Shown in pieces: positions 1-29,757 of a DNA stretch of 35,557 nucleotides. A program made the position numbers and the translations under genes. Position 1 is the first letter of the stretch. Each line of letters begins with the position of its first letter. Location: assembly GCA_009602725.1 (NCBI GenBank), contig WELB01000004.1:469196-504752 (forward strand). Direction: 5' to 3'. The DNA is from Spirogloea muscicola. Lineage: Eukaryota > Streptophyta > Zygnematophyceae > Spirogloeales > Spirogloeaceae. A model generated the notes under the pieces. It was not told where the DNA came from and did no database searches. It saw only the letters and a list, made by a program, of their open reading frames with translations.

Positions 1-125
<125 letters not shown>

Positions 126-168: not shown

Positions 169-1451
169 ATGGCGGCGACGGCGGCGGCGGTGAGCTTCCG
201 CGCGGGCGCGGCGCTGATGCTCGCCTTCGTCGTCGTGGGCGCGCTGCTGACCCTCGCCAGCAGCATCGGCCTCACCGCCGGCGTCTGGGCTGCCGCCTCC
301 GGCGGCGGCGGCGGCGGAGCGGAGGACGGCGGCCTCGGCGGCGCAGCGGCGGCGCCAGCGGAGGGGGAGGAGGAGGAGCGCGCCGCGCCGCTGCCGCGCG
401 TTTGTGGGTCGCCGGCGGTGGACGGGTACGCGCACGTGAAGCCCGAGTGCCTGCTCGAGTCGCCCACTGCGCTCGCCTGGCGCAAGCTGCACCCCCAGGT
501 GGCCAAACCTCCCCTCACCTCTCCCCGTTGCCGTTCGGCATTCGAACATCAGTCAGCGACCTCTACGTGCTGACTCGTGGTTACTGAGCGGGTCAGCTTA
601 GCAGCAGGTGATGTACATTGGTCAATGTGCTTGCCTTGTACTTGGCCACTCAGGCCCTCCATCACTCAATACACAATCAATTCTTCCTTCTCCCTTCCTC
701 CGTCCTCACCTTTAGCCCCGGCTTGCGAGCCTCAAGTCCTGCATTGTGCACCCTGCGCCGTGCTGTGAATCGTCTGGCTAGTTCTGGGCCCACTGCCCGC
801 CGCTCGTGCGGCCACCTTGTGACGGTCGCGGGTCTGCGCCGCGCTGGCGGGCTGGCAGGGCGGCAAGAGCGGCGAAGGCTTGGAATGTAATACCGAGGTG
901 GGGGTGAGCATTGACGGCCTCGCCGTCGGCTGGGGGCTCCACAACATCAAGGCCTCGGCCGAGGAGTGCTGCCAGGACTGCAGGTGCACGCCACCATCGA
1001 TACAGGCGCTGTTGGTCTCGCATTGAGGCGGCTCCCTAGCCGGGCCCAGCGACGGCATTGGCGGCGCTGACGAATAGCGGCGACATCCGGCAAAGCATGA
1101 GCTAATGAGGGCTGTGCTGGTGCATCGTGATTTGCTCGTGGCCGCAGGGATCACGTCCCTGGTCCGCAAGTGGGCGGGCCCTTTCAGGACCTCCCGTGCA
1201 ACGCGTGGGTTTTCTGCCCCGACGACGAGTGCTTCGAAGCGGATGCGCACCACCACGTCAAGGGCAACTGCTGGCTCAAATTCACTGAGGCACCGCAGTC
1301 ACCTGAAATCAATGCTCGGGGTGATTTCCCGCCCGACTTCCGTGCCCGACACCCCACTGCACCAGCCCGCACGCAGTGGATATCTGGCATACTCCTTCCA
1401 CCCGGCCAACTCCTGACCAACGGCACATGGGGCCCGCGTGCATCATGGTAA
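169..1451 (+). CDS. PAN/Apple-like cysteine-rich protein with N-terminal membrane anchor (3 exons)
   Basis: Assembled exons are 169-498, 859-983 and 1148-1451 (phases 0 and 2 agree), giving about 252 residues. Residues 13-40 form one hydrophobic segment, read as a signal anchor. A Gly/Ala/Glu-rich linker follows, then a cysteine-rich module with LECNTEVGVSIDG, a CCQDC pair, LPCNAWVFC, and GNCWLKF near the end, then a HPTAP...WISG tail. This order resembles plant uncharacterised proteins with an Apple/PAN-like fold. Family membership rests on my recollection of that motif order. No catalytic residues are seen, so a ligand- or protein-binding role at the endomembrane or cell surface is only inferred. 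The first ATG, at 161, is out of frame; the ATG at 169 has a better context. Intron 1 contains a retroelement 3' fragment. The final TGG-TAA overlaps a donor-like GTAAGC, so a further 3' exon cannot be excluded. Confidence 0.78.
530..705 (+). mobile_element. Retroelement 3' end fragment, copy A (inside intron)
   Basis: The frame ending at the TGA at 585-587 reads SVSDLYVLTRGY before the stop. The following tail (GAGCGGGTCAGCTTAGCAGC, then GTGCTTGCCTTGTACTTGGCC and GGCCCTCCATCACTC) is shared with the copies near 4074-4200 and, reversed, 13840-13690. It is strongly 5' truncated, to a few codons, and sits wholly in intron 1 (499-858) of the PAN-like gene. Its pyrimidine-rich end lies upstream of the exon 2 acceptor. 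Confidence 0.75.
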
Positions 1452-2129
1452 GCCTTGGTGGCTGCTGCTTAGACGACTACCAGTGGCGGCCATCAAGACT
1501 GATCAATGCAGCCGCCAATCTCAAGGGCGATGCATGTAACACCAATTTTGCGTGCTATATCCGCAATCTCTTCCCAGAGACCACTGCTGGTCTTGCTGTA
1601 CTACACGCTATGGCATTTTGCAGCAGAGTGGAAGCTAGTCGACCGCATGTGACTGCCAATTCTAGACTAGCTCCTCTGTCACCTTCTGGTCATGTGCAAG
1701 GATTTGCAGGGACCATATTTGTAAACATTGCCAGCTCTTCTTCTGCAATCAAGATTGCAATCACGCCATTAAGGCACATTAGTGGAGATGCGCGTGCGCT
1801 GCCGCAACTGGCAATTTTGAAAGTGCAAAGCTTCCACCCAATTAAGGTACCTGCCGGAATTGTGGGGTCCCAGATCTGAGTCTCTAAGCACAAGCGCCAA
1901 GATATGGGCCATTGTAAGACATCATTACCACACCATCAAAACGGGCGATTGGAGGGCGTTGCCAGAGCCAATTCACAATGCTATTCAATTCACAGGCCGA
2001 GCCCAAGGGCACTATCTGTGCGCGGCTCTGTTCCTTTGAGATTCCGCCAGTAGCACAGGCGAGCGCTGCCCGCAGCCATGTCACTGCGTGGGTACAGGGG
2101 TTGCTCCAGGAGCTCTACAGTGCCGCTGC
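1452..2129. other. Convergent intergenic region
   Basis: This lies between the 3' ends of the PAN-like gene (+) and RPL21 (-) and should hold both 3' UTRs. Open frames occur on both strands (for example + 1376-1879 and - 1884-2084), but I recognise no family in them and they lack clear splice-linked continuity. I see no repeat from the families described elsewhere. Confidence 0.5.
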
Positions 2130-2899
2130 TTAATAACCGCCCTTGAGCTGAGTGACGATGTCGTACGGCACCGCCGTCATGGTGTGCAGCGTCTGGCCCT
2201 CCACGATGAAGCCGGGCTTGGGCCCTGCCGGCTGCCGCTTGGTAGAAATCTTCTCCCCTCGCTTCTTGGCCTCGGCCTGCACAGCGGCGGGGGCAATGGT
2301 GCCCGTATTGGCCTCAGTAAGACTGTTCCAGACGGCAGTCGTCAACACAGCCCACAAGCGGCAAAGGTAGCAGCTCAAGAGCAGGGGCCTAGCAGAAGGG
2401 CGCAGCTGTTAGCAGTGGCGGGATGCGGCGCGGAGGCGACGCCGGACCTTGAGCTCGTCGTTGCGCTTGCGCCGCTCGAGGAACTCCTCGTGGCACCGCG
2501 ACTGCACGACGTGCTCGAGGCGGACGTGGATGCGCTTCTTGATGATCCGGTTGCCCACCTGCATCCCCCGCCGGGCACCAGCAGCAGCCATAGGCCGTGT
2601 CAATGGGGCCCCGGCTCGGGAGCGGCTCGGCTAGAAGGCGGCAGAGACGGGGAGAAGCGCCACACCTGCTTGTTCATCTCGACGCCGAGGGAGCGCTTGG
2701 CGACGTTCCAGATGCGGCCGGTGCGGCCGTGGTAGAACTTGAACGGCATGCCCTTCTGCACCGCCGCGTTGGCCTTGATGTCCACGTAGTCCCCCACGCG
2801 GAAGGTGCGCAGGTACTGGCCCAGCGGGATGTACCCCTTCTTCCGGAACGCCCGCGAGAACAGGTCCCGCGTCCGCGACCGCAGCCCGTGCCCCTTCAT
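2130..2899 (-). CDS. RPL21: 60S ribosomal protein eL21 (L21e), 3 exons
   Basis: Cytosolic large-subunit ribosomal protein. Exons on the minus strand are 2899-2666, 2558-2448 and 2276-2130, all phase 0, giving 163 residues, which matches plant eL21 (about 164). Diagnostic stretches are [78 protein letters not shown] and the terminal [12 protein letters not shown]. The start is MKGHGL where plants usually have MPAGHGL; it is the only ATG that fits. Introns are short (107 and 171 bp) with GT-AG ends. Upstream sequence has telo-box-like motifs typical of plant ribosomal protein genes. A single N at 2910 lies 11 bases upstream of the ATG, so the 5' UTR may be misassembled. The protein appears intact. 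Confidence 0.96.
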
Positions 2900-3060
2900 C
2901 GCGCCCCTCNTAACCCTATCAGCCCAGGCAGCGGAACAAGCGCCGCCGCCGCCGCCGCCGCCGACGCCGCCGCCGCCGCCGCCGGCGCTTCTGCGAGGAT
3001 CTAAACCCTCGAGGAGCACTAGGGTTCTTCTGGGGCCAGGTTTCACGACCACTTGGGTAA
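2900..3060 (-). promoter_or_regulatory. RPL21 5' region with GCC repeat and telo-box-like motifs
   Basis: Upstream of RPL21 (read on the minus strand) there is a (GCC)n tract at about 2940-2990 and telomere-motif copies: TAACCCTA at 2911-2918, TAAACCCT at 3002-3009, and AACCCTAG on the minus strand at 3019-3026. Telo-boxes of the AAACCCTA type are established promoter or 5' UTR elements of plant ribosomal protein genes. Assignment here is by position and motif only. Confidence 0.55.
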
Positions 3061-3248
3061 CCTGGCCGGGTCGTCTCCGGAGCTCAACTCAGCCGTCCGA
3101 TGGTAAGCCATCGCAGCCCTCCATGGCCAGTGCATCGACGGCTTCCCTACCCTTGGATTTTTCAGAGCCCCCCCTACCCCTTCAGAGCATCGACAAACAT
3201 TGCTGGCCACGCAGTGGGCATTGCAGAGCAGAGAAAGCTACTGCAATA

Positions 3249-3784
3249 CAGTCATACCTCGTTATAAGCACCCACGGATAAGGGCACATTAGGGCAATCC
3301 CTCTATAGTGGCACCTTTTTGCGGGAAGCATTTTTTCCCCAGGCAAAAGTGACTCGATAAGGGAACGTGCCGTTATGTACAGGCACAGTTTTTCGGGGCA
3401 AATTCCCCCACTAGAGAAAGAGCTCGCCCATTGAGGATGGGGGCTGGAACAGCCAGCCCAAAAAAGAATGGACAAAGTACGAGAAGTGCCCTATATGAAA
3501 ACAAACCAACATATCTCTAATATTCTCTACAGGGATTAGGGTTGAGGTTTAGGGTTTAGGGTGTGGGGTTTAGGGTTTAGGTCTAGGGTTAGGGTCTAGT
3601 ATTTAAACCCTATCCCTAAACCATAACCCAAAAGCCATTTTTCAAATATAATCTGATATACTGCTGACTGTCACGGTAGAAGCACATTTGGGGGCAATAG
3701 TGCCTCTACAACGAACAAGGACACCTCGATATAGTCACACATTTTCGCCAAACCGACCGACGTGCCTATAACGAGGTATGACTG
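3249..3784. mobile_element. Pogo/Tc1-mariner-like MITE, 536 bp, TA target duplication
   Basis: Terminal inverted repeats start CAGTCATACCTCGTTATA at 3249 and match the reverse complement ending at 3784 over 24 positions, with mismatches near the inner end. Both ends are flanked by TA (3247-3248 and 3785-3786). There is no transposase frame inside, so it is a non-autonomous element. CAG-starting TIRs with TA duplication are typical of Tc1/mariner and pogo elements, which supports the class but not the family. The interior holds one hairpin module (3441-3459) and a telomere-like inverted repeat (3531-3630). Confidence 0.85.
3531..3630. repeat. Interstitial telomere-like TTTAGGG inverted repeat
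   Basis: About 65 bases of degenerate TTTAGGG/TTAGGG units on the plus strand (3531-3597) are followed by the reverse-complement motif (AAACCCTATCCCTAAACC, 3604-3622), so the tract can fold back on itself. It lies in the middle of the MITE. TTTAGGG is the usual plant and green-algal telomere unit. Confidence 0.8.
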
Positions 3785-4199
3785 TACTCCGACTACCCCC
3801 GGTGCAATCAGCTCCTGCCAGCTGCAGTTGACACTTTTGGCTGTCTGGGTCCGCGTTTCCACACCCTCCTCCACAACATTGCCAATCTAGGCCACACACG
3901 ACGAGCAGATGTGTTCCCGGCTGAGATGTGCTTGCAAGCTGTATATCTGTCTTTCTTGCGACGACGAGTTTCGGCCTGTCTGCAGCGTGCCCAGGCTAAT
4001 GCCTTGCACCAGAAAGCTGGGCGAGCTCTAGTTGGTGGCAGAAGGGCTTCTTATCCGACATCTAGTATTCAGGCATCGATTAGCGACCTTTATGTTTTGA
4101 CCCGCGGTTACTGAGCGGGTCATTCTGCTGTAGGTTATATAGGTCTTAGGTGTGCTTGCCTTTGTGCTTGGCCATTTGGCCTTCGTTTGTTTCAAATAC

Positions 4200-4600
4200 A
4201 CGAATTTTCCCTAATCTGCGGCTGCTTAGCAGGGATTACTGAGTGATTCGTGGCTGCTTTGTTTCTTTTTGTGGCTTGTTTTTCTTAGCGTTCCCTTGGC
4301 CCCCTTCTCGTACTTTGTTCATTCGTTTTTGGGCTGGCTTTTCCAGCCCCTATCCTCAATCCTCAATGGGCGAGCACTTTCTTCTTCTTTGCCAGCCCCT
4401 CTTCTTTATGGGCTTGCTCTTTCCACGGCCATCGTCCCCTTTGATAGCTTCGCACTGTTACCTGCCATTGCCCCATTTTGGAAATGCTTTAGCTACCTTA
4501 GTCCCCCTCTTAGCATGGGCTTCGCTATTTGCCTGAAGAATGTATAGGCTGGATTTGGCTACGTTTCATTTCATGCGCATAGCGCCTTCTCTATCATTTT
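4200..4600 (+). mobile_element. Second retroelement 3' end (copy B2) with hairpin tail
   Basis: Directly after the B1 tail, a second protein end occurs: NLRLLSRDY then TGA at 4240-4242, matching copy E (DLRLLSRGY). Its 3' tail resembles that of copy E at 18140-18280, including the perfect hairpin GGGCTGG-CTTTT-CCAGCCC at 4331-4349 and ATCCTCAATGGGCGAGC. Here ATCCTCA is tandemly duplicated. B1 and B2 are thus two element ends in tandem. The distal limit is uncertain. Confidence 0.65.
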
Positions 4601-5518
4601 CTCTCGCTCTATGATGGCCAAGAAACAGGTTCATCCAAGAACGAGGCGGTGGCTGTGAATTGAGCAGCACCTCCACAACAAGAAGGGGGCAAAACCCGTG
4701 AAATAAAGACTTTTCCAGTAGAGGGCGATGGCTGTGAAAGGCAAGCCCAAAGGGATAGACAAGGAAACACAGTCGATCTTTTCACAACTGCCATCACTCT
4801 TTGTTGGCTCGCCACCGGCGTCATTGCCACCCTCATCCACTAGGCCATGTTGAAGATGCACAGCGGCGGTGGGCAAACCCAGGCACATTACACCATACAC
4901 TGATGAGATGCTGTACTTACATGCACTCGAGTCCGGCACCTTAAGCTAGCATGTGCTGCAAGCAGTGAACGAGGAAAACGAGAATAGGAGCTCAATGCTT
5001 CACATGTATGTAAGCCTGCAGCCCGGAAAGACTTCAGGCAGTGCATGATACAGTCCTACTCAGCCAAACATGACATCACTGCAGCATCACTGACATGCTG
5101 GCTCGCAGCAAGCGACAGAGGAGCAATTGGTCAAGCGAGGCAACGAAGCAGTGCGGCGTCAAGCTTGCCACAGTCGCCAATGCAAAGACGCAGACCTCTC
5201 ATCTTTCAGAGGTCCATGGTTGTACTGAATTGCTCAAGCTTGTTGCTCGTTTCATCAGCACGACAAAGTATAAGCATAGGCTTCACAACTGATTTGGCCG
5301 TCCAATGTGTTACAGCTCTTGGCTCACATCACAGTGCTTCTGTAGAAGAAGATGATGGGTTTCACATGTTGCCTCAATCTTAGTGCTTGGCAGTGATGCC
5401 AACAATCAGTCAAGGTGAAAAGTACACAACTTGATATGTAGGCCTGATGAAGCGACTTCAAGAAAATGCTCAATGTGGACGTACAGTACAGACCACATTA
5501 GGAGATTCTTTTGACTGG
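4600..5518. other. Intergenic region between retroelement copies and the CTP synthase 3' end
   Basis: About 4640-4760 holds a degenerate minus-strand copy of the hairpin tail (TTTGGGCTTGCCTTTCACAGCC when reversed). From about 4760 to 5518 I see no gene or repeat I can name. The part next to 5518 should contain the CTP synthase 3' UTR. Confidence 0.45.
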
Positions 5519-8500
5519 TTAGCTTACGGCGTCAAATTCAACATCATTGAGGTTCCTTGCCACGTGGGGCCGGGGGGGAAGCAGGTCAAGTGCTGACATT
5601 GGTCTGGAATTCTGGTAACCGTGGAGACTAGGGGCTTTCTGAGGAGACTGTAGCGGTGTGCTCAGATTGTCTCCCCTCATGTACCTATCCATCTGGCCGG
5701 AGGCTGCCAAGATGAGGCCTGCAGCAGATAGACGGCAACAAATATAAGAATCCCATGCCATGGCAGAGGAAGCAAGCTTCTGAGACGTCGCAAATGTGCA
5801 GCACACGTGGCAGGCACAATAATGCCAAGGGCTCGTTAGTAATTGCAAGGGCAAGACATTCTTACAGAATCAGCATTGCATAACCTCTGCATGGTGTTCA
5901 TGAGACTGACAATTAAACAGCAAAAAGGTATATCATCCTTACCAAGAAAGACAGCTGAAGGACGACCAGGCCTCGACTTGAATTCAGGATGGAATTGGAC
6001 TCCAACGTAGTATGGATGACCAGTAAGCTCCACGATCTGTGACATCAGGGAGTCAAGGAGCAATTTACAATACAGACTACACCCTTTAAGGAAAGCATAC
6101 AGACACATATCAGACATCTTCATATCTCTAGGCTTCAGATTAATTAAGGATTACCTCCATGCGGCGACCACTCTCGTCACGACCAACAAAGCGCAAGCCT
6201 GCCTCTTCCAGTTGTGGTACCATCTCGGGATTGACCTTCAACAAAATGAAAACCACAGCGCCTCACCTCTCCACACAACAACGTTGTACCTAAGCACCTG
6301 TGACTTATAATCGCAGTGTGTAAACAATCTCTCCTTCAAGCGGATGTGTGATGCAACCAGCACCTCATACTAGGACATGAACTGCAGAATCCCACTAAAA
6401 ATTTGGTGGTGCTTGCTACAAGAGCAACTCTTGGTGCATTTTCTGAAGAGATAATGTAGGGAGGCTGGCAGTATTCCTGTACCTCGTATCGATGTCTGTG
6501 CCGCTCATCAATGAAGCCATCCTTTTGATACCTACATGAATAGAGGAATGAATGAGCTACCACGGCATGCACTAGGCTCACTCACTAAGCTTCAAAAACA
6601 GCACGTTCGCAAGCCTCAGCATGACAGTCCTATATACATAACACAAACGCCTTGGGAAGCCGACCCTTCAGCAAAATTGGTCATGATCACGGCCCATCTA
6701 ACTCACAGCTTTGCCGTAATACAATCAGGTGTGAGAAGAATCGTCCTCCTTGAACCCAACCGCATGGTGCCTCCCATCTGCGTCTTTGACACCTGCAAGG
6801 ACACAATAGTCATAATAGTGCAGATGCTTTTGACGCGACCACATGCATACCTGCATCTGCGTCATACTGCATACATGCCTAGCAGTAAGATTTTGGCTCA
6901 AGACTTAAGGTGTGTGGCATGTTTGGTCCAGGTTGACACCTCTGGCATGAACACAACACAGGGGCTTGAAGTGGCTGAATCGAACTCCGTGCTGTCTGCA
7001 CTTGTCATACCCAGGATCTGACATTGCAAACGCTTCTATGTTCAGAGACTATTTGACATGTCAGCCAGCTCCTCCATATCTGGACAGCAAATTTTTTGCG
7101 TATGACGATGGAATTTATTAAGGACCTCCCTAAATCACAAAGCAGAACAGTGATGATGCTGCACAGCTAGTCCTTCATTTCTTGTCCCTCTGCCTCGAAA
7201 GTCGATCTAAAAATGAGCGCCAATGGTAGATGCTCACCGATCGAGCAAACTCAATGACAGCAACCTGAAGGCCAAGGCAGATTCCAAGGTAGGGCTTCGC
7301 AGACTCTCTCGCATATTGTGCAGCGATGATCATCCCTTCAATACCCCTATCCCCAAAACCTCCAGGGACAAGTATACCATCTGCTCCCTGTGCACATTGA
7401 CCATGCCTCTAATTAGAAAGAACTACAGGTAGGCAAACAGGGTGTGGCAATCAAGACAAATTCTCAGTAACTATGCAGACAATCATACTCAATATTATGA
7501 CAAATTGCACAAAGTGGTTGGAGTGCATAGTGCCAACTTTCAATGCCGCCCAGGCTGCTGTGCTGGCCTCCTCACTCTGAGCAGGATTAGGACATGTGAA
7601 ACAGGAATGTCAGTTGCTGCTACTGCTGCTTCAGGGAGGTGTGAGGCTAATTGAGGAGACTCAAGGATCATCGGACCTGAATTCGCACCGGAAAAAGGCA
7701 AGAGCAGCCTGTGCACAACGCCAGCGGATCAAGCCCGTAATACTGACATACTCACATCAGATCAAGGTATTGATTCATGGACCCAAGGTAGCTTCTTTAT
7801 GGGTTTCTTAAGCAAACCTCGGAATGAGATGATTCTTCAAGGTCCGTAGCAGCTATCCAGTCAATTACCAGTTTTCTTGAGCAAGCAATGCACGCGTGCT
7901 GCAGCGCCTGTGAAATATACACATCCCGCTCTCAATCAATCTTTCATGCAGAGCCCAACTTTAGTCAAGTCACCGCTGCTTTTCCTGACTTGCAACTTAG
8001 GTACACGTCGGGCCTCAGTGGTAGTGACATGTTTCCTCTACAAGTGACAAGGTATCTTGCCATCAGGTAATACGTGCATGGTAATTCGTCATTGGCCCGC
8101 ACTCTTGGAACAGCTACTTTATCCTTTTCACAGCCTATGCGAGAGGAGCGACTTGTGTCTGCTTGATGGCTCTAACAGCTTCTACAGTGCCTCGTACCCA
8201 GCCTGCAGCAATTTACTTACAGCCTCTGAACTCTGCATCTACATGAACACTGACACTCAATGCCAATGGAAGAGAGTTATCATGGCATACCTTAAGAACT
8301 GAGAGGTATGAGTCTGCCAGGCCAGTATACTTGCCCACCATGGCAATACGGACCTGTAGAAGCAACAACAAATCAGGCATGTTAGAGAACATTGCAGCCC
8401 AATGTGTGGTACATACAGAGTAAGGCTTTCTAGACATGACACAACAAATTGACGAAATGAGCCACCCATGAGCACGAGCAAGCTTGGTGCAGTCCTTTAC

Positions 8501-11500
8501 CTCCTTCATCAGACTGTCCCAACGACTTGCCCGTGCCTCCCAGTCCTTCAACTTTGGTAAAGGCGTCGTGTCGCTGCACAACAAACACGTATGCGCAACT
8601 TGCTCATGATCCCTTTTGGCAAGTCATATGAGCAAGTGCCTTAAGTAAGCGCCTGCCACAGTCAGGCACTTGTAGACTGCTTGTAGAGCACTTTGCTACT
8701 TACTTGCATACAGTATTGTCGTACAGTCTTAAGCACATGGATCAAGGGATGGTTGCTTTGACCCCTTACAAAAGATTGAACTCCTTAAGGATAGCACTGT
8801 GACCTCCTTGATCCTGTGCAAAAGATTTCAGGAGGATGGCAGAGGCAAGCAGTCAGTTTGGGAGAAGGTCCTCATCATCCACCCGATCTTTCTATTTTGC
8901 TCTTGTAGAGAACCTATGTAAAGAAAACAGACAAGTAGGAGTGCCACAACGACTGCGAGATGCTGGATATGATGTTGAAGTAATAGCTCTCTGGACATTT
9001 GAGTAAGAAGAGCTGAAGATAGACCTTGATAATAAGTGGTATATGCCAAATGTTGGAGACGTCGTGAAGGTTAAGGATGTGATCAGACTGCATCACCCCG
9101 TTCAAGAAGGTGAACACCTCAGTGGAGATCTAAGCCAGCTGCCATTTGAGCAACTTGGCAGAGCTGGAACAGGAGGACCTGCCCAAGCATTGGAAGGGCT
9201 CTGTAACATGCTAGGCATGGCATCATCTTTCGATTTTGCGATATCAAAGGCAAAAGACTGACCGAAACGTGGCAAAACTGTGAAAGCTTCTCCTTGGTCG
9301 GCTGCTCCAGAGGCTGTGGCATAGAAGGTGCGGCAGACGTTCACTGACTGGTGAAGCAAGCACTTGCACTACACACTTAATCTTTTTTGATAGAAGGAGG
9401 ATCCAAGGATCATCGATGAAGCCTCTGCCACTTTGTAGCTGCAATTTGGTACTCATTGTAAATATACCAACTCATGTGGTTGACTTGGTTCTGTGCCAAT
9501 GGCTTCACACAAATTGGTGAGAAGATTCAAATTACTTGAGCGCTGCGGCAGGCTAGGAGATGTGGAGTGAGGCCCAGGGCTCTAAGCTCCCGGACACTAT
9601 GCTGCGTTGGCTTGGTTTTCTGCAGCATCCAATGAGCACAGCAACACCTCTCTGACAGTGAACCAATTGCAGGTCCGTGCAAAGGGTTCTCAATCGCTTG
9701 CCTCAAAGCAGAGTTAAGAATCGTGCAACTTAGAGACCCATTCAATTGAGCAAGACCTCCTTGTTTACATTCCAGCAAATGCCATGCTTCTCATTTCACA
9801 CGTTTGTCTGGACTTGGACCATTGCATCAGTTGCCATCTTTGTCTCCACTGTTCATCAGCTGGAGAGCATACCTGCTCACCAACCACACCCAAGACAGGC
9901 ACCAGGCTCACGTGTACAAGGCAGAAATTATTCTTGCCTGCACACCGGAAGGCATGACAATGTCCATGAGGCGGCTACAGGGAGTGCATGAATTTGAGGC
10001 ACACATCAAGCTACTTTGATGGCATAAATTGATTGGAACAATGACAATGCGCTGATAGTAATTGGCTGCAGAATTTTGATATTGATTTCAACACTAACCA
10101 CCATTTATCAAGTGACTACAATCTCCTGCAATGCTTAATCGAGTAGCAAAAGAGGCTATCACGGACGACTGACCATTACCAAGTTCACTCACCAACTCGA
10201 AATTGGAATTGTCGGAGAGCTTCAATGAAGGGCATTGACTCGATGTCACCTGCAACAACAGCAGATTCACGCAAGTCAAATTACAATGAGATTGAGCAGC
10301 CTCATGGATTGCATAAGTTGCACCACCCAAGAGCCAGCCATGTTGGATGGCAGCTGTAGCAAAGGGTGCACTTCCTCAGCTGAAGGAGCTCAGCAATGCT
10401 CATTCCCAAAATTACATAGCTGATTCCTAGTGCCATAAATGATGGCCATTTAGCACAATAGGGCAACATGGAGAGGCAGCTGAGAGCCAAGGCTGTGTAC
10501 CAACAGTTCCGCCGAGCTCAATGATGCAAATCTCAGACGGCCCTTGCAGACCGTCGACTGGGATGTGAGCAACTCTTTCGATCCACTCCTGTATGGCATC
10601 CGTAATGTGGGGAACTACCTGCCACACGCTTGACAAAGGGGTAAATCTCAGTGACCTCCTGTAATGCCGCAGTTGCCACATGGAGCAGGATTGGTGATGC
10701 GCCAGAGTTTGCTGGCAATTCTGCCTTGTGTAAAGTGTCGTAGATTCAAGCAGAATAGCCAGGTGTCTCAGACCTGGACGGTCTTCCCGAGGTAGTCTCC
10801 GCGCCGTTCTCTTTCAATCACGGACTGCAAGTAGGTCAGATTGCGACTTGTCAGCAGGAGGAGTCTGACATAACAAGTTCTGACATTATCAGTAAGGGCA
10901 GAGCCTGTCGCAAGTGCTGACTGGAATAGCGGGGTAACCTGGTAAATTTTTCCAGTGGTAATGTTGTTGTCGTGCGTCAGCGTAATGTCCAGGAACCGCT
11001 CGTAGTTGCCAAGGTCCAAGTCCACCTGGGCAAGTCCGGCGCAGGCGTGGCGCTCTTAAAGAGCGGCGGGAGCTGAAGTCCAGGCTTCTCATTGGTTGTA
11101 TGCTGCAAGCGCAAGCCCCAAGAGCCGGGTTTTGGTCGTGAGGAGGCTCACCTCGCCGCCATCGTCGAGCACAAACACCTCGCCGTGCTCGAAGGGCGAC
11201 ATTGTGCCCGCATCCGTGTTGATGTAGGGGTCTGTGCTTCAAGCGGGCGCACCCCAATTTGTCTTTCTTTTGTGAGGCATTCTTGCTCGGCCGTCACATT
11301 GACACAGTACCGTTCGCTTCTCCCATAAAGTAACGCGGGCAAGTCGATGGCGCACTCTCGCCGCTCATGACCGCGCGGGGGAGGGGCGGGGCCAGGACGG
11401 GCATGTTCACGCTGGCGGCCTCACCGATCTTGATGGCCGTGCAGCGCAGGCCGCAGGCCTTGAGCACGACGCCGATGCTGCTGGCCGTCACGCCCTTCCC

Positions 11501-11545
11501 CAGCAGGCCGCTCACCACGCCGCCGGTGACCACCACGTACTTCAT
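5519..11545 (-). CDS. CTPS: CTP synthase, 22 exons, complete
   Basis: Converts UTP, ATP and glutamine to CTP. Minus-strand exons: 11545-11425, 11231-11152, 11025-10939, 10824-10774, 10618-10501, 10249-10193, 9937-9873, 9619-9536, 9313-9263, 9087-9025, 8813-8770, 8573-8501, 8353-8291, 7907-7818, 7576-7538, 7387-7238, 7017-6940, 6792-6707, 6531-6483, 6235-6155, 6036-5943, 5718-5519. They sum to 1824 bases (607 residues) and every phase agrees. The synthetase domain has the N-terminal P-loop, [52 protein letters not shown] and [18 protein letters not shown]. The glutamine amidotransferase domain has [10 protein letters not shown], the nucleophile in GICLGLQ (about Cys400), [13 protein letters not shown], and the catalytic His/Glu in VQFHPEF (about 526/528). 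The C-terminal tail of about 65 residues is Ser/Pro-rich and divergent, as in eukaryotic CTPS. Oddity: the P-loop reads SGLLGKG, with one extra Leu compared with the usual SGLGKG. Confidence 0.96.
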
Positions 11546-11860
11546 GGCGCCCGCTGCCCAGCACGGAGGGGCAGGGGCCCTGCCCCGGCACCGCAGCCGC
11601 CCGGCTAAACCCCGAACTCTAGCAAGCCCGTAGACCTAATCAGGTCTCCGCGTCAGCGCCGGCGGCGGCTGCTGGGCCGCCGGACGCGCCGCGAGATGCG
11701 GGCCCGGCGCTGCACAGGCCGTCGCCTGCCATGGGGGTTTTGGCGGGAACGCGCCGAGTGTCGGATTTTAGGGGTCGTCTGTGTCGTGTTGGAGACGCCG
11801 GGTTCGAACCTGCTGGGGAGCGAAGAAAGTGAGCTCTTCCAAAAGTCACAGCCATCACCC
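11546..11860 (-). promoter_or_regulatory. GC-rich 5' region of CTP synthase
   Basis: The sequence upstream of the CTPS start is GC-rich and without introns or repeats up to about 11780, consistent with a 5' UTR and CpG-rich promoter. GGTTCGAACC at about 11801-11810 resembles a tRNA B-box but no tRNA folds around it. The tail of retroelement copy D begins at about 11820-11860. Confidence 0.4.
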
Positions 11861-13368
11861 TACTGGAAGAGGGCGCGCGGTGCGCATGAGATTGAAAGGG
11901 AGGCCAATTCTAGCCTTACAAATGTCCTGTTAAGTGGGTAATGAGCTGGCTAAGGAATGAAGAAGTGGCACTCCCAATGGGGGCAAGGGCTGCGAAAAGC
12001 CAGCCCAAAAAGAATTCACAAAGGTTCAGAGGGGCCTAAAAGCGGTGAGCAGCTACAAAGGGGCCTGAGGATGCTATGGTAAAACAGGGGGAGGATGGAG
12101 CACTCAGTAATTACGAGTGAGGAGCCTCAGATCCGACAGACAAGCTGCCGGGAAGCTATCACCCTGACGAAAGCCAGAGCCCGCAGCGAGAGCACGGCCA
12201 GCTCGCAGATGCAGAGCGTGGGCCATGGAGCGCTGCAGGGATACAGAGAGGCGCATCCGGTAGACCTGCGCCCACGAGCCAGCGGCGTTGAAGTCGGCTG
12301 GCTCGCCGCATCTGCGGGACACAGCCCGCCGCGCAAGCCTAGCCAGCAAGTCAAGCCACTGGGACCCAAGAGCCCCGTGTACCCCACCGCCAAGGGGACG
12401 AACTCGTCGGCAGGTGGGTGGTCGGAGTGCTTGGCCGCCTTGCAGCGAGCGGCCTTCGAGGCAGCGTGGCCTGCCCGCGAGGCAGAGAGCCCCAGGTTGG
12501 AGCGGTCGACCACATCGGTGGTGACTACATCGGCTATGATCCGCGCGCCACCTCCCGGCGTGGACGCCACCAGGTCAACACGACGCGTATGGTGTCCGTC
12601 AGCCCTCTCGAGGATGGGCATGACCGAGGCGTTCTCCATCGCCACCGTGTAGCCCGCCTCCTGAACGATCCCGAACATAGCATCACGCAAGAGGTCGTGC
12701 GCAGCTGTTCGTTCGCCTCCAGTGGCGCAGCGGAGGAGATGCGCCGCCAGCTCCGCCGGGTCCGTCGACCGCTCCCCACATTCGCACTGCAACACGCCAG
12801 GCAGGCAGGGCGGGGGGAGGCCTAGCAGGCGATGCGTGGCCGTGCGGAACAGCTCGTCCGGCAGCCTGAGCGCATCATACAGTGGGAGCGCAGAGAGCCA
12901 GGCTGCCGCGCCGGGGGAGGGGGCCGACAGCAGCCGAGCACGGCCGCGCACGTCGCTTGCGGGGAGGAGCTGCAGCGTGTCCGTGAACGCCGCCTTGTCC
13001 ACAGCAGCCATGTATCGCGCCTGCGCCTGCGGAGTCGGGGGTGTGGGCGAGGTGGGCGAAGTGGACCACGCTCTCTGCAAGGGCAGGATTTTCCGTGAGT
13101 AACCCGTCCTGGGCTGAGCGGAGGGCCTCCTGGAAAGGCAACGAGCCAGACGCCACCTCCTCCAGAACCTGCTGCAGCAGGGGCCGCCCATCATGAAGGA
13201 AGCGCTGCGCCACCGACGTGGCGACCTGTGCCCAACTGCCGAGGAATGCTGGCCTGCAGACGCGCGCGAGCGAGCGGCAGCCGAGGCCGCCCTGGCCAGG
13301 GGGCAGTGTGGCCTGGAGCGTCGCGGCTGACTAGGCAAGGAAGCCATCGTGGCGGCTAAGGGGGACAC
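11860..13368 (-). mobile_element. 5'-truncated, frameshifted retroelement with RT 3' region and PD-(D/E)XK-like domain, copy D
   Basis: Longest element copy; it reads on the minus strand in three frames. About 13310-13050: LPPGQGGLGCRSLARV then AFLGSWAQVATSVAQRFL, typical of the segment after the reverse-transcriptase core in green-plant and algal non-LTR-type elements. About 13050-12360 (another frame): RARLLSAPSPGAAAWL, THRLLGLPPP, CECG with HLLRC (zinc-knuckle-like), GGERTAAHDLLRDAM, then E in AMENASV, RRVDLVA, RIIADVVTTD and K in ARCKAAK, spaced like a PD-(D/E)XK nuclease. About 12350-12104: EPADFNAAGSWAQVYRMRLS and the end SDLRLLTRNY, TGA at 12104-12106. At least two frameshifts make it dead. 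The non-coding tail (12103 to about 11860) holds the hairpin at 11988-12006. The RT core itself is absent. The clade is not certain; nuclease-bearing non-LTR elements are the nearest fit. Confidence 0.75.
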
Positions 13369-13539
13369 TAATATCCCCGAGTGAGCACATGCATATCTGA
13401 CAAGCTATACTGAGGAGCCAAACCACCACCACGGAAGCCCCTAGCCTGGGCTAATGCACGACCAGCACGCTGGTGAATCGCGAGTGCCTGGGAGCGCTGC
13501 AGACTCAATGATAGCCGCAACTACTGGAAGAGTCTTTCT

Positions 13540-13840
13540 TCATCTTCCATAATGGGCGGGGGCTATGAAAAGCCAGCCAAGAAAGAATGAACTAGTCTTA
13601 GCGGAAAAGGGCTGACAGGCACCAGAAGCACACAGCAATGCAAGAGACTACAGCGAAGGAAAGCGATGGAGTGTGCAATAAGTGATGGAGGGCCTGTGTG
13701 GCCAAATACAAAGGCAAGCACACGGACACATGTATAACACCTGCTGCTAAGCTGACCCGCTCAGTAAGCACGATTCAGCACATAGAGGTCGCTAACTGAT
13801 GCCCGATACCGGACGGCAAGTTCTAGACCTTCACACTGTC
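13540..13840 (-). mobile_element. Retroelement 3' end fragment, copy C
   Basis: On the minus strand the frame reads SVSDLYVLNRAY then TGA at 13761-13763. The tail shares GAGCGGGTCAGCTTAGCAGC, GTGCTTGCCTTTGTATTTGG and GGCCCTCCATCAC with copy A, and a degenerate hairpin lies at about 13560-13590. Upstream (13840-13870) the similarity to copy A stops. It lies in the same orientation as copy D, about 170 bases before it. Confidence 0.7.
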
Positions 13841-13869
13841 GAACCTCGACCCTCCAAATTGCAAGTGTT

Positions 13870-14830
13870 CAGCTGGAAGTTACTCCGACTTGCTGCTGCT
13901 AAGTCGGGCTTATCAAGCTCCACTCCGCCGTAGTCTCGTGCATAGCTGTGTGATTTAGGCGCTTTGCGGCTCTTTGGACCTTGTCTATTCTTTTGGGCTG
14001 GCCTACCCAGCCACTACCTTTTATTGGAAGAGCTTCCTCTTCTCTCCAAAGCTTACGACCTGGAGTCTGCTTCATACAGGTGTAGCTCCTGCACCATTCA
14101 CAAAGTGTCAGCAATGTCTTTCAGGATGTCCGAAATGGTGGTGAGGTGTTTGGGGAATTAAGAGCAAACCGCCTACACAGAGAAGCACCCACGCACAGCT
14201 TAGTAGAAGGCTTCACCCTGTGCTACGCCGCAAGGCGGCGGCTCCTACTTCTGAGCATCAGCCGCAGCCTGCCCCCCAAGCGAGATGCAAGCACGGAGCC
14301 CTCGTAAAGAGCCGGCAGCTAATCGGGGAAACAGGCTGCAGCATCGAGCAGCAGCAGGGCTTCACCACTCTGGGCTCTCGTGCCAACCGCCATAACCTAT
14401 GCGCAGTTGCTCCAAGGCTTTCACTTAGAGGAGCTGCGCCTTAAGAGTGACACAGGAAGCTGTGCCGAGCGGCGTGGTGGCTCAGGCATGCCGCAGAACA
14501 GTTCCGCTGTCAGACCTTCCAAGGCCACCGGGCAAGCAGTGAGCCGCCCAGACGAGCCGGAACTTAATGGATCAAGAACAACAGCAATACAACAGGACCA
14601 ACACGGCCGTGCTGCACATCAGGAGGTTGACGGCCTCACGGGTCGGAATATAGTATCAAGAATGCCTGCAGTTGTGCAGATTTCTATGTAGCAATACCGG
14701 CACATATTGGTGCTTGTGTGGTTTGGAGGCCTAAATATCTGTGAAAGCATCCAGCTGCACATTGTAAGGTTACTGAGGGAGTATCATCACGCAAGTCAAG
14801 GGTGGTATACATGTACATGCAAAGCAAAAG
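13870..14830. other. Intergenic region with one plus-strand hairpin tail
   Basis: A plus-strand hairpin module occurs at 13995-14012 (GGGCTGG, CCAGCC), in a context like the tails of copies E and B2 (CTTTGGACCTTGTCTATTC before it, GGAAGAGCTTCCTCTTC after). From 14060 to 14830 I recognise nothing. The end abuts the stop codon of the ubiquitin-like gene and should carry its 3' UTR. Confidence 0.45.
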
Positions 14831-17291
14831 TCAAATAGGGATGGCGGTGCGAGATGTCCTCCTCTCAAGCAGGCTCTGCTGGAATCTTGGAAGAACCATG
14901 CTGCCGTTTAGCCAGCTGGCGAGGCCACTTTTCCTCCAGCCTAAACAGGAGTGGCGCAAGGCGAGGTAGCCACTGCTCGCAGCTGATCTGTATCGGCCCG
15001 AGTCTTCTCTGTAGACGGGCAGCAGCTCGCTAGTGGACACAGACAGCTTCACTGCCAGCCAGCCGAGGAGGACTGAAGAGCTGCGAGCAGACTGACTGCC
15101 TTGACGTAGCAGGCTGAGTTTCGAACCTCTGATGTTGCTTTCAGAGAGATTGTCTGCAAACGTGAGATTCGCAGTTGCTCTTGAGGAATCTGTGCCCCTC
15201 CACCACGAGCTTTCAAGCCAGCCGTTAGTCCCACCAACAGCAGCGCTCTCCTTGCACTCGGCACTACCTGCAAGCGCTTCTGGTATGGGAGCTGAATAAC
15301 ATCCTTCACCCGTGGTGAGGTATTGGGAGTCACTGCAGGATTCCTGGCCCCAATCTCTGTTAAAGTATGGTCCAACTTTAGCCTTGAAGACGTCTTCCGC
15401 CTGTTGGTCTCTGGTAGCAGGTTGACTCTGAAAGGCACCTTCCGCAGTGCTGGTTGCATCTCCAAATGGTGTTGTCAAGTGCCTGCAGGCTCTGTGGAGG
15501 AATGCTCCCACCTTTTCTCCCTGTTTATATGGCCAATGATATGTTTCCACGGGCTGTCCTGAGCGGCACACATTGACAGTGACCAGTGGCAAGGCGTGCG
15601 TATGTGTGAGCTCCTGGCTATAAGCACCTGAGAGCGACCACAGGGAGGGGAGTGTCAGGGAGGTGACGGCCTTACAAAATTACAAGACATACAGTCATGT
15701 TTGCCGATCTTTCCGAAAATGCAGGTGAAGAGTCTAATAGATTGTATCTGTTTTACTCTGAGCTCTGAAGCCGCATGAGACCTGAACATGGACTTGCAGC
15801 ATCGGTGTTGCTGCAGCAGGTGACATGCATACTTGTAACATCAATGATGCCGTGCAGGACTGGCCTGTAGTCTGCTAGTTTCCTGTCCTTCTCCAGCAGC
15901 ATACCTGTGCAAAATTGTAGTGGACAGCATATCACATTTTTAAGCATACTTTCAGGCTACCACATGAAGCTGAGCTGTTCCATTTTATGTGCTTGTATAG
16001 TCCCTTTCGACTGAGAGACATGATTACTCCTGGAAATACCATGGAAACCCTTGTGTTGAATGGCGCTCACCATCAAAGCTGGCTTGCAGTTCGACTGCGC
16101 TCACACTCGTAAAGTGGCTTGCTAAATTCAAAAGGTCATCAACAGTATGCTTCAGCTGTACAACAACGTCCATGTGCAATCCATCTAGCAATTTCAGGCG
16201 GACAAGCACGTGACAGTGCAGCCCCGGCTTTGATGTCAAGCCTGCATGACGGGAGACAGACAGTGCGATCAAAGATCTGGATGAGGAGCATGTCCACCCC
16301 CCTATCCTTTCAGCATTTACCGACAGTCCGCGTAGTCGACACAATGAACTGGTCGAGAGTCTCACCAGAGGAGCAGACATCCAAGATGGAGTCCTCGCGG
16401 ACTGCATGCACTCCCTGTATCTGGTCAAGGCGAGCATGGTCGCGTAGTTCCAGCCCCAGACTGAACAAAGTCAAGCCTTCTGCTTTTGAGCCCACAGAAG
16501 TTTGAACCCGCTGCTTGAGGGCGTCGACCTGAAGGCCAGGGTGGACGTCGTCCAAGACGATCGATCCTGTGGGAGTGGTGACACGAAGGCGTCCTCCTGC
16601 TGCATGGAGAGGCCTCGGCAGGACCTGCGTCCGCCACAACACGTGCTTCAGTGTTGCAGAGCCTGCTCCCACAGCAGTGCATGCTGCAAGTAATGCTGGC
16701 GAGAGATGTAAGGACACTCTGAGCACGCGGAGTAAGCTGGCGGGTGCGTGCCCACGTGGACGTGAAGTGGCGACTCCGAAAAGGGCAAGTCGGACAGGTG
16801 CTGGCAGTCATTGAGCTCGACCAGCTCGGGGCCCTTGAGGAAGACCAGGCGCTGCGTCGTCGTTTCCAGATACAGAGGGCGCACTGCCTGAGCGCTGCTG
16901 CACAACAGATGCCCAATGGCATGCGTCAGTCTTGGCAGTGTTGCGGCTGCAAGGCACACCGGACGCTGCATGGATGGCGACTTCCGCCTGAGCGGGGCGC
17001 GCCTCGTTAGATGAGTGTGTCCCAATTATGTCAGCATGTAGCTAACCTGCTCGAGACGGCTTGCTGAGGCACGGCCTCGTGATGACCCAGCTGGACGAAC
17101 TGAGGCGTCAGGACGCGCAGGCGGCTGGCGGCAACGCCTGTCGCGCCCTGCACGGCGGTCTTGACGTCCACGACCGAGGCGCCATGGGCTCGCAGGCCCG
17201 GGAGCGCCAGCCGGAGGACGGGCGGCCTGACCGCCTCCGCCGCCGCCCTTAGCGGCCACTCGTACACATAGACGGCCGTAGTTGCCGCCAT
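14831..17291 (-). CDS. Protein with several ubiquitin-like domains (6 exons)
   Basis: Minus-strand exons 17291-17047, 16987-16756, 16624-16366, 16241-16071, 15904-15833 and 15627-14831 sum to 1776 bases (591 residues) with agreeing phases. Exon 3 (about residues 170-245) encodes a clear ubiquitin-like fold pattern: LRVTTPTGSIVLDDV, LQVDALKQRVQ, LFSLGLELRD, VREDSILDV. Exons 4-5 (about 253-330) encode another: HVLVRLKLLDG, HTVDDLLNLASHF, VELQASFDGMLLEKDRKLAD. Exon 1 (LRLALPGLRAHGASVVDVKT) and exon 2 (RPLYLETTTQRLVFLKGPEL) look like weaker ones, and exon 6 starts one more (LVTVNVCRSGQPVETYHWPY). The last about 220 residues are Ser-rich and unrecognised. No C-terminal diglycine is visible, so it is not a modifier precursor. 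An adaptor or shuttle role is inferred only. Multi-ubiquitin-like proteins are known in plants, but I cannot name this one. Confidence 0.78.
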
Positions 17292-17811
17292 GGCCGAGAC
17301 GCCGCTACTCCACGCGCCACTCCCCGGCGGCCGGGCGACCGGTGCCGTCAGGCGGTGCTGCCGGCGAGGGCGTGGGGCCGGAGGGCAGCCGCGCGTGCAG
17401 CCGCGGCGGGCGGCGGGAGCGGCGGCGGCGGCGGCGGGAGGGGGGGGCGCTTTGCCCCGCCAGGCATTTTCGCGCCTGGCCAACGGCTCCCAGAGGGCCG
17501 CAACCCCGCCCGCCACGTGGCGCCAGGGGCACACTCCTCTGCCCGTCACGTGGCGCAATTGTGTCGCCTGCGTCAGGCAAGGCGGCTGGCAAGGCCGACC
17601 TGCTGCTCGAGGGAAAGGGAAACCCACAAAGTGAGCCTCACGCAACGTCGTCCCATCCTGATCAGTCTCTCTCCTGCGCTGGCCTCTCGCAGCCATTTCC
17701 CTCGGCTGGAAGCGCCTGTCCCCTTTTCTTACGGGGTAGGCCGCGCTTTGCCCTCTCCAGCTGTTACAACAGCGCAGGTGCGGCTGCTGACCCAGGGTCA
17801 CTATGCTTTTT
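17292..17811 (-). promoter_or_regulatory. GC-rich 5' region with two G-boxes
   Basis: Upstream of the ubiquitin-like gene the DNA is GC- and GGC-repeat-rich (about 17400-17460). It has two CACGTGGCGC motifs in the same orientation, with cores at 17514-17519 and 17547-17552, 33 bases apart. CACGTG G-boxes bind bHLH and bZIP factors in plants. No TATA box is assigned. Confidence 0.45.
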
Positions 17812-18350
17812 CAATCTGACCATCCGCCGGCAGACAAGTTCTTCCCGTTGGCCATAGACACCCATGGGGCGCTGGGCGCTCGGTGGCTCGAGCTGCTCAC
17901 CCAGCTCGCCCGCCACACCATCGCCCGTCGCTTCCAGGGGAGCCTGTAGACTTCCCTGCAGCAGGGTCGCTGGCGCAATTGTATCGCATGCGCCTGGCCG
18001 TCTCGCTGCAGCGGTCGATGGCCCGTGCACTGCACCTTCGTGCCGGCCGGGCTCTTGCTGCTGCCTCTGGCTCTGGCCAGGGGACCCACTTTCAGGACCC
18101 TAGCCTCTCTGATTTGCGGCTGCTTAGCAGGGGTTACTAAGTGATTTGCAGCTGCTTTCTTTCTTTGTGTGCTTTGTTTTCTTAGCGCTTCCTCTGGCCC
18201 CCCTTCTCGTCCTTTGTTCATTCCTTTTTGGGCTGGCTTTTCCAGCCCCTATCCTCAATGGGCGAGCCCTTCCCTTCTTAATCGCTGTAGTCTCTTGCCT
18301 GGCTGTGTGGTTTGAAGCCATTCAGCCCTTTGGACTTTGTCCGTTCTCTC
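17812..18350 (+). mobile_element. Retroelement 3' fragment, copy E
   Basis: Starts in the nuclease-like region: SDHPPADKFFPLAIDTHGAL up to an in-frame TAG at about 17947. It then continues one frame over as DFPAAGSLAQLYRMRLAVSL and ends SDLRLLSRGY with TAA at 18138-18140. It aligns with copy D (SDHPPADEFVPLAV and YRMRLSVSLQRSM). The tail carries the perfect hairpin at 18230-18248 and a degenerate second module at about 18345-18370. A single-base indel separates the two frames, so it is a pseudogene fragment. Confidence 0.8.
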
Positions 18351-18369
18351 TGGGCCGGCTTTCACAGCC

Positions 18370-18830
18370 CCCCCTTTTTTTTGAAGGAGCTCACTTTCCT
18401 TTGGGCTGGCCCTGTGCAGCAGACAAAATGGCACTTCCAAATGGGCGGGGGGGGCGAGAACAAGAAAAGCGCGGCCGAATTGACTGGTGGCTGGGAGAAG
18501 CCAGCCCAAAAGGAATGGACAAGGTCAAGAGAACAAGGAGCTCTTTCAAAAGGAGGGCAGGGCTGTGAAAAGGCAGCCCGGAAAGAAGTGACACGGTCCA
18601 AACGGCCCAAGGCGCTACAACCACACAGCTATGCAAGATGTGGAGGGAGCGGGGAGGGGAAGATGGAGTATGTATAATTGATGGAGGGCCTGAGTGGCCT
18701 GAGGGTGGTACCGGACTGTGCTGCGAAAATCCTAGTGGAGCGCGGGGCGCGTTCGCTGGGAAAATGGTGTGTATTAAGAGATGGAGGGCCTGTGAGGCCA
18801 AATACAAAGGCAAGCACGCTGGGGAGGCCG
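18370..18830 (-). mobile_element. Retroelement 3' tails in opposite orientation, copy F
   Basis: On the minus strand GTGCTTGCCTTTGTATTTGG and GGCCCTCCATC (about 18820-18780) and a second GGCCCTCCATC (about 18680) repeat the tail of copies A and C. Two hairpin modules follow: a degenerate one at about 18560-18580, and GGCTGG/CCAGCC at 18489-18506. The end faces the tail of copy E head-on at about 18350-18400. Confidence 0.65.
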
Positions 18831-20440: not shown

Positions 20441-20575
20441 GTGACAGGGGGACAAGAAGAAGTGGCACTCCCAATGGGGGCAAGGGCTGCGAGAAGCCAG
20501 CCCAAGAAGAATTGACTAAGGTTCGGAGGGCCTACGAGCGTTCAGCAGCTACCAAGGGGCCTGAAGTGACAAGGG
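20440..20575 (-). repeat. Hairpin tail module (minus orientation)
   Basis: Closely matches the copy D tail at 11955-12075: AGTGGCACTCCCAATGGGGG, AAGGGCTGCGAGAAGCCAGC (stem 20484-20489 with 20498-20503), then TTCAGCAGCTACCAAGGGGC. No coding end is joined to it. It lies about 270 bases upstream of the PMP22 start. Confidence 0.7.
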
Positions 20576-28504: not shown

Positions 28505-29757
28505 CCCGGCGCCGGGGGGCTAGGCCGCGCGCGCGCGGGCGCGGCGCCCGGCGGCGGCGGCAGCGAGGGCGAGCTGCTGCCCTGGCGCGGGGCTCCGGCC
28601 GTCTCCTCCCATCCGGGGCTCGGCCACCGCCCGCTTTCTGCTGCTCTGGCCCGTCCTTTCGCCGCTGACAACCCCGGACTCCCCCCCCGGGGGCCCGTTC
28701 CCACGGCTCCTCACTCCCCCGTCTTCAGCACGCCCTCCTCGGCAGGACGCACCAGGGTCCCGCAATCTCAGCCACTGGCCGTGCCACGTCGGCAAGCCGT
28801 CCTCGTGGTGGGAACGAGGCTCTCGGGAGCGACACGCTGGCCAACGGTCGCGCATCGCCCCTCCTGCAGGGACTCCGAACCCACACGGCCCCCCCTTTTG
28901 TGCTCGTTTGGTGTTTCCCACTCTGCCTTGTGGCGGCTCCCGCTGCAGCGGTCCCGCTCGGCTGAGGCTGCCGTTTGGGACGCACAAAACTTGTGACGTC
29001 GGGCCAGCTTCTGTAAATTCAGTGGTGGGTTGATCGAGTCGAGTCCTTTGAAGATGGACACCGGAGGCCTTGCAGGCTGTTAGCGGCCAGCTAAGAGAAG
29101 AAAGCGGTTCTCCCGAAGGGGGCAAGGGCTGTGACCAGTGAGCCCGAAACAAACTGACAAGTGAAGAAGCTCTTCTCACTGGTGGAGGTAGTTGTGAAGG
29201 AGCGAGGCCAACCAGGACCCTGACTGTGCTGTCACTTTTGGACTTGTACCAAAGATGTCCCCTATTCATATGCTGTGGGATGTGAGCACTGTGCATGGAG
29301 GTTCCAGAGACCGCAGCAACTTAGAGAGCCATGCACGGAAGTTTCATTGCTGGCTACTAATGTCTTAGGAGCAACGTCGTCGGACTTGACTGCCAGCAGA
29401 GCAGCTCAGCTTTTACCAAAGAGAGTTGCTGCAGTCAGCCCCTCGTCCTTCAAGACCAATGATGCATGATTAGTTGCAAATTAGCATCATAAGTACTGGA
29501 CAGTCACAACTGATTATAGTACATGCCCATTCACATCATACTGGGCAAAGAATAGCCAGTCAGCAAATTCACTGACAGCTGATAGGCAACACACCTGCTA
29601 GTACCTCAAAATGACTACCCTCTACTAGATACCTGAAGGCAAGGCAACTCCAAGGATATAGAAAAGCGCATGGCACACTACGCTGCCATTCCTTGTGTCA
29701 GCTTCAAATTTTAAAGGGGCAGCTGTGACCTCATGGACTATGCAACTACACAGCTTC
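28505..29757. other. Intergenic region: LACS promoter side and LHW-like 3' side
   Basis: 28505-28990 is GC-rich and lies just upstream of the LACS start, so it probably holds the 5' UTR and promoter. A degenerate minus-strand hairpin tail is at about 29095-29200 (GAAGGGGGCAAGGGCTGTGA, matching 11970-12000). 29220-29757 shows nothing I can name and should include the 3' UTR of the bHLH gene. Confidence 0.45.

What the first reader, a model, noticed from the sequence alone, without database searches (positions are those of the whole stretch)
530..18140. Six fragments of one element family share the C-terminal motif SDL(Y/R)(V/L)L-x-R-x-Y before the stop
The ends at 585-587 (+), 4112-4114 (+), 4240-4242 (+), 12104-12106 (-), 13761-13763 (-) and 18138-18140 (+) read SVSDLYVLTRGY, SISDLYVLTRGY, NLRLLSRDY, SDLRLLTRNY, SVSDLYVLNRAY and SDLRLLSRGY. 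Lengths upstream vary from a few codons to about 1.2 kb, which is the 5' truncation expected of target-primed reverse transcription. Two subfamilies (Y-type and R-type) have different tails. The conserved protein end, after a PD-(D/E)XK-like region, is not something I can match to a named clade.
Basis: partly seen in the sequence, partly recalled or inferred. Interest (0 to 1): 0.72.

Follow-up and report, generated by a model that had tools for sequence, protein, structure and literature searches.

The report
R2-like LINE with many 3'-end fragments
The repeated protein endings are the tails of a recently active copy-and-paste jumping gene related to R2 elements, which has littered this genome with copies, many only 25 to 100 bases long.

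Summary
All six ends are real and at the stated coordinates; the motif with stop occurs 6 times, 0 in 100 simulated windows. They are 3' ends of a non-LTR retrotransposon family. Elsewhere in the 153-Mb genome, copies have one open frame (1,299 and 1,255 aa in the two read): finger motifs, reverse transcriptase (E 8e-16, 1e-18), CCHC knuckle, restriction-like endonuclease (RLE) and this C-terminus. At least two young lineages exist. RLE-LINE hallmark residues are present; knuckle spacing and GXW differ. A low-confidence fold matches R2 proteins best over RT plus RLE, then Prp8. Exact-word counts fall from 1,697 at the 3' end to 1,098, 81 and 23 going 5', as target-primed reverse transcription with 5' truncation predicts. 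Copy D interrupts another copy with an 8-bp target duplication; an uninterrupted paralogue exists. Clade placement was impossible without a eukaryotic RT reference set. Unusual: dispersed insertion and co-oriented, often nested micro-copies down to 25 bp.

The parts
528..690 (+). Copy A: 5'-truncated Y-type copy (about 60 nt of coding end plus 3' tail); ends SDLYVLTRGY at stop 585-587
   Evidence: blastn to young Y-type L094, 87% over 160 nt, 528-683; tail HMM 585-675; 3' limit approximate
3186..4204 (+). Copy B: 5'-truncated Y-type copy, interrupted at 3247-3786 by an unrelated terminal-inverted-repeat element; ends SDLYVLTRGY at 4112-4114
   Evidence: blastn pieces 3186-3249 and 3785-4204, 92% and 97%; TIR arms
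3415..3490 (-). Tail-only R1-type fragment inside the interrupting element
   Evidence: tail HMM E 5e-21
4205..4385 (+). Copy C: R1-type copy truncated to the last few codons plus tail, joined directly to the 3' end of copy B; stop 4240-4242
   Evidence: blastn from 4208 and tail HMM E 3e-33; start approximate
11956..13353 (-). Copy D: R2-tail type copy, 5'-truncated in the linker region, with CCHC and RLE and end SDLRLLTRNY (stop 12104-12106); two frameshifts
   Evidence: tblastn to L035/L049/L056; bounded by the direct repeats
11948..11955 (.). Target-site duplication CCTTAGCC on the 3' side of copy D
13354..13361 (.). Target-site duplication CCTTAGCC on the 5' side of copy D
13362..13520 (-).
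   Evidence: tblastn 13371-13520; uninterrupted paralogue in L030
13544..13599 (-). Tail-only fragment of R type
   Evidence: tail HMM E 3e-5
13671..13819 (-). Copy E: Y-type short copy, ends SDLYVLNRAY, stop 13761-13763
   Evidence: blastn 87% over 153 nt
13884..14050 (+). Eighth end, SDLLLLSRAY with the stop lost, followed by an R-type tail
   Evidence: translation; tail HMM 13960-14041, E 5e-5; 3' limit approximate
17782..18280 (+). Copy F: R1-type copy, end SDLRLLSRGY, stop 18138-18140; one frameshift near 17937
   Evidence: blastn 91% over 348 nt; tblastn in frames 1 and 3
18283..18395 (+). Probable tail-only fragment (a further tail type) next to the 3' end of copy F
   Evidence: tail HMMs only E 0.003 and 0.01; chosen by eye as a seed, where its match is by construction; bounds approximate
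18467..18521 (-). Tail-only fragment, R3 tail type, directly downstream of the next one
   Evidence: tail HMM E 2e-7; adjacency
18539..18611 (-). Tail-only fragment of R type
   Evidence: tail HMM E 2e-5
18765..18821 (-). Tail-only fragment of Y type
   Evidence: tail HMM E 5e-8; blastn 88% over 59 nt
20456..20567 (-). Tail-only fragment, R2 tail type
   Evidence: tail HMM E 3e-31
29102..29162 (-). Tail-only fragment of R type
   Evidence: tail HMM E 2e-7

Best explanation
The ends belong to a family of non-LTR retrotransposons (LINEs) of the restriction-like-endonuclease group. One protein (1,299 and 1,255 aa in the two long copies read) carries N-terminal finger motifs, reverse transcriptase, a CCHC knuckle, a PD-(D/E)XK-type nuclease and a helical C-terminal extension ending in SDL-x-x-L-x-R-x-Y. 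Shown: RT domain, nuclease hallmark residues, intact young copies, fixed 3' ends with variable 5' truncation, short target duplications in some copies, dispersed sites. Inferred: the RLE nicks a T-rich site, the A-rich primer end starts reverse transcription at the RNA's 3' end (...CTTTCTTC, after a hairpin GGGCTGG..CCAGCCC), and synthesis mostly aborts early. Because the element's own sense-strand tails are T/pyrimidine-rich, new copies tend to land in or against older copies in the same orientation, building nested chains of micro-copies.
Confidence: 0.92

Rival explanations
1. Dualen/RandI-type LINE: an algal element carrying both an APE-type nuclease and an RLE.
For: Dualen is known in green algae (PMC8226300 passages) and codes for both nucleases (PMC3636483 passage).
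Against: No APE (exonuclease-endonuclease-phosphatase) or RNase H family in any of 4 long proteins at E up to 1. The Y-type frame L094 is bounded by stops on both sides, and its part before RT is a proline-rich finger region.
Confidence: 0.03
2. Chains arise by end-to-end template jumping: one reverse-transcription event copies several RNA 3' fragments in series, so joined fragments share one target duplication.
For: Fragments of different tail types are joined at or within 12 nt of exact 3' ends (L029, L013, L042, L033, L006; B to C in the window). 8 of 14 short copies with both flanks matched are not simply nested. R2-type RT does template jumping (PMC8857657, title and start of abstract in a listing only).
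Against: 6 of 14 are nested in a contiguous older copy. Separately, L087 and L103 hold R1 fragments at one R2-tail site with duplications of 5 and 10 bp. Co-orientation also follows from T-rich target preference.
Confidence: 0.25
3. The short fragments are copies of a separate SINE that borrows the LINE 3' tail, not truncated LINEs.
For: Very high number of tail-only copies; SINEs commonly share LINE tails (recalled).
Against: 5' ends are spread (start points 26-138 nt from the 3' end in 55 R1 hits, 138 being the model's limit), and I saw no recurrent non-LINE 5' head in the flanks printed (by eye).
Confidence: 0.05
4. A host gene family without RT.
For: Copy D alone has no Pfam match.
Against: Intact relatives have RT in the same frame; 1,697 exact 3' ends; near-identical copies.
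Confidence: 0.01

Closest known systems
R2 non-LTR retrotransposons (R2Bm, R2Tg, R2 of Platysternon)
   Same: Single ORF with finger(s), RT, knuckle, RLE; best PDB match by 4-sequence profile (E 1e-9) and by fold
   Different: Copies are dispersed, not at one 28S rRNA site; knuckle spacing differs; conserved SDLxxLxRxY end; 5' truncation down to 25 bp
BLAG, non-site-specific R2-like elements of Blattella (PMC7650587, passages)
   Same: R2-like protein with insertions scattered in the genome
   Different: Insect; relation to the present family untested
Utopia / NeSL group of RLE LINEs (PMC4640811, abstract and sections 9 and 10)
   Same: One protein with 1-3 N-terminal zinc fingers, RT, one zinc finger and RLE
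   Different: Utopia targets U2 snRNA genes; the flanks sampled here are diverse (U2 genes not searched for); no tree possible
Zepp / ZeppL (PMC8226300, passages)
   Same: Algal LINE with nested insertion into existing copies, giving arrays made mostly of 3' ends
   Different: Zepp is L1-type and clustered at centromeres; this family has no APE match, has an RLE and is spread over many contigs

Membership tests
Non-LTR retrotransposon (LINE) | Reverse transcriptase in the element's ORF | tested here: met
   RVT_1 in 4 of 4 long proteins, same frame as the C-terminal end
Non-LTR retrotransposon (LINE) | Fixed 3' end, variable 5' truncation, dispersed copies | tested here: met
   word counts 1,697 / 1,098 / 81 / 23; 5' start points
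Non-LTR retrotransposon (LINE) | Target-site duplications | tested here: met
   8 bp for copy D; 5 of 15 short copies >= 5 bp, 1.6 expected; the other 10 show none that long
RLE-type LINE | PD-(D/E)XK-type nuclease C-terminal to RT with H, E, D...D and K in helix 2 | tested here: met
   8 of 8 for H, E, D, D; 7 of 8 for K-x2-[KH]-[YH], strict KX2KY in 2 of 8; model order helix, 3 strands, helix, strand (low confidence)
RLE-type LINE | CCHC knuckle with spacing CX2-3CX7-8HX4C | tested here: not met
   knuckle present in 8 of 8 but spaced CxC-x11-12-H-x3-C
RLE-type LINE | GXW motif after strand 4 | tested here: inconclusive
   GxxW in 6 of 8, GxxF in 2 of 8
RLE-type LINE | N-terminal zinc finger(s) | tested here: inconclusive
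   C2H2/CCHC patterns read by eye; Pfam zf-C2HC_2 E 4e-4 in L094 and zf-C2H2 E 0.09-0.14 in L056, all below the curated cut-offs
RLE-type LINE | R2-like fold of RT plus linker plus RLE | tested here: inconclusive
R2 clade proper | Insertion at one 28S rRNA gene site | tested here: not met
   flanks of 40 sampled R1 copies are diverse; whether any copy lies in a 28S gene was not tested
R2 clade proper | Position inside the R2 clade of an RT tree | not testable with these tools
   no eukaryotic LINE reference sequences held; only PDB chains
Dualen/RandI | APE nuclease in addition to RLE | tested here: not met
   no such Pfam family at E up to 1 in 4 proteins, one of them (L094) a frame closed by stops on both sides

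The most novel reading that the evidence does not exclude
A separate clade of RLE LINEs that has lost site specificity and recruits its own T-rich 3' tails as targets (or jumps between RNA tails), so that intergenic DNA of this genome is being rebuilt from co-oriented chains of 25-100 bp LINE 3' ends.
Probability: 0.3. Interest if true: 0.6.

Novelty: new member of a known kind. Interest (0 to 1): 0.45.

Why it matters
RLE LINEs are the source of current RNA-templated gene-insertion tools (PMC11371274, listing only) and are mostly site-specific. A young, very abundant and dispersed family gives natural variants of the nuclease and knuckle, and a record of thousands of junctions in which target choice, early abortion and template jumping of an R2-like enzyme can be read.

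Tried and rejected
Pfam on the window's own fragments gave no match apart from a neighbouring L21e gene; the family became clear only from the longer relatives. Giant open frames of up to 7,842 aa around some matches: the three loci read to check this (L031, L032, L033) contain 2,822, 441 and 737 N, so there they are an assembly artefact; the other giant frames were not checked. Relatives outside this genome: viral contigs none confirmed by tblastn; phages none; genome contigs two loci at 26-28%, which I read as bacterial group II intron RTs. Covariation of the 3' hairpin: none. The RLE profile alone against PDB: none up to E 10. The sequence TTTGTAGCTG of the R2 tail begins the 3' flank in 5 of 40 sampled ends (L083, L087, L099, L100, L103) and looked like a target, but in L099 it seems to be the start of a further fragment, so it is only partly a target. 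First-look orientation counts (12 same, 2 opposite of 137; 19 vs 10 of 40, P 0.14) were replaced: 170 ends, 52 same, 19 opposite, 99 none, P 1e-4. The control 200-260 nt away also leans the same way (36 vs 23 of 109). In one search, 63 copies not reaching their 3' end gave 6 vs 2. These loci were chosen around element matches, so they are not a random genome sample. Dropped before counts: duplicate contexts, ends with under 60 nt downstream and N-containing flanks; 25 of the 40 sampled ends whose 5' start lay outside the fetched stretch or was not found; 6 of 10 fetched 3' stretches in which my search word was not found. L057 (31-41 differences) and L062 (361-366) are outside the '9 of 11'. 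Papers: the listings (top rows only, open-access library) showed no algal RLE LINE of this kind that I recognised; Repbase was not available, so this is not evidence that none is in print.

Full report
What was checked. The six reported ends are in the sequence at the stated coordinates. The motif with stop occurs 6 times against 0 in 100 simulations. The window lies in an unnamed 153-Mb assembly of 471 contigs. It holds a ribosomal protein L21e match and what reads as a CTP synthase exon (recalled), so it is eukaryotic; 'green alga' is my inference, not tested.

More copies than reported. Two further coding ends exist (SDMHVLTRGY-stop; SDLLLLSRAY with the stop lost). Seven tail-only fragments were found with profiles of the 3' tails at E 3e-5 or better, and an eighth is weak. 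Copy B is interrupted by an unrelated element with 25-nt inverted ends, inside which sits another tail fragment.

What the ends belong to. Searching the genome with the copy D protein gave 102 matches (lower bound). One relative, L030, has RVT_1 at 1e-8 in the same 832-aa frame as the C-terminal motif. Searching with its RT part gave 99 matches; 17 share one score with no stop. Those fetched mostly carry a single frame ending SISDLRLLSRGY, with a C2H2-like and a CCHC-like finger upstream (motif reading; Pfam support weak), RT with FADD, the CCHC knuckle and the RLE. A second lineage ends SASDLYVLTRGY; 9 of 150 matches lie in a frame of exactly 1,267 aa, one of which was read in full (L094). 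The two lineages are 46% identical from before RT to the end.

The C-terminal motif. Between the lineages the last 10 residues are 70% identical against 45% overall, but 151 of 976 windows do as well. It is a conserved end, not an exceptional one. The model puts it in a short helix (low confidence).

How it moves. Exact words of the young R1 lineage fall from 1,697 (3' end) to 1,098 (stop codon), 81 (about 1.1 kb in) and 23 (about 3.8 kb in), controls 0. Different conservation of the words may account for part of this. Young copies have different 5' start points (L053, L055, L061). Of 10 fetched 3' stretches my word found 4; three stop at ...CTTTCTTCT without poly(A) and one stops earlier. The 40 sampled ends carry this end by choice. 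Nine of 11 copies compared differ by 1-17 in 3,390 bases, so activity is recent. Copy D sits in the 3' UTR of copy G between two CCTTAGCC repeats; a paralogue of G in L030 lacks it. Of 40 R1 ends sampled from three contigs, 15 have their 5' start in view and are 25-108 bp long; 5 of these 15 have direct repeats of at least 5 bp, 1.6 expected, P 0.01.

Chains. Of 170 distinct 3' ends, 52 run straight into another element fragment in the same orientation, 19 in the opposite one, 99 into neither (P 1e-4); left flanks of 65 tail-truncated copies give 28 against 5; a control region 200-260 nt away gives 36 against 23 of 109. Six of 14 short copies with both flanks matched are nested insertions; the other 8 are joins or mosaics. 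The simplest reading is a preference for T-rich sites (T at 35 of 40 junctions), which the tails themselves offer on their sense strand; template jumping is the rival. Nested 3'-end arrays are known for the L1-type Zepp of algae (PMC8226300 passages).

Tails. The R-type tails share TTCTTTT-GGGCTGGC and a hairpin before the end; the Y tail has a different hairpin. The R1 tail folds better than all 200 shuffles, the Y tail better than 191, a further R tail better than 188, the other two not clearly (170 and 149). There is no covariation, so RNA recognition by the hairpin is inference.

Verdict. A real, recently active RLE-group LINE family; ordinary in kind, unusual in abundance of micro-copies and in dispersed insertion. 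Clade unresolved.

Noticed in passing
window 3247-3786: 540-bp element with 25-nt terminal inverted repeats (TACAGTCATACCTCGTTATAAGCAC) containing TTTAGGG-like repeats, inserted in copy B; MITE-like.
   Followed up: partly
window 1-123: Run of 123 A at the window start, directly before a GC-rich coding-like stretch.
   Followed up: no
L083, L087, L099, L100, L103: The sequence TTTGTAGCTGC of the R2-type tail begins the 3' flank in 5 of 40 sampled R1 ends, as insertion site or as fragment start.
   Followed up: partly
L023, near 1490: A truncated R1 tail runs into three TTTAGGG units and then a linker-region copy of the element, a telomere-repeat-like join inside a contig.
   Followed up: no
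window 2600-3088 (-): Ribosomal protein L21e match just upstream of copy B, with one N in the assembly near 2910.
   Followed up: no
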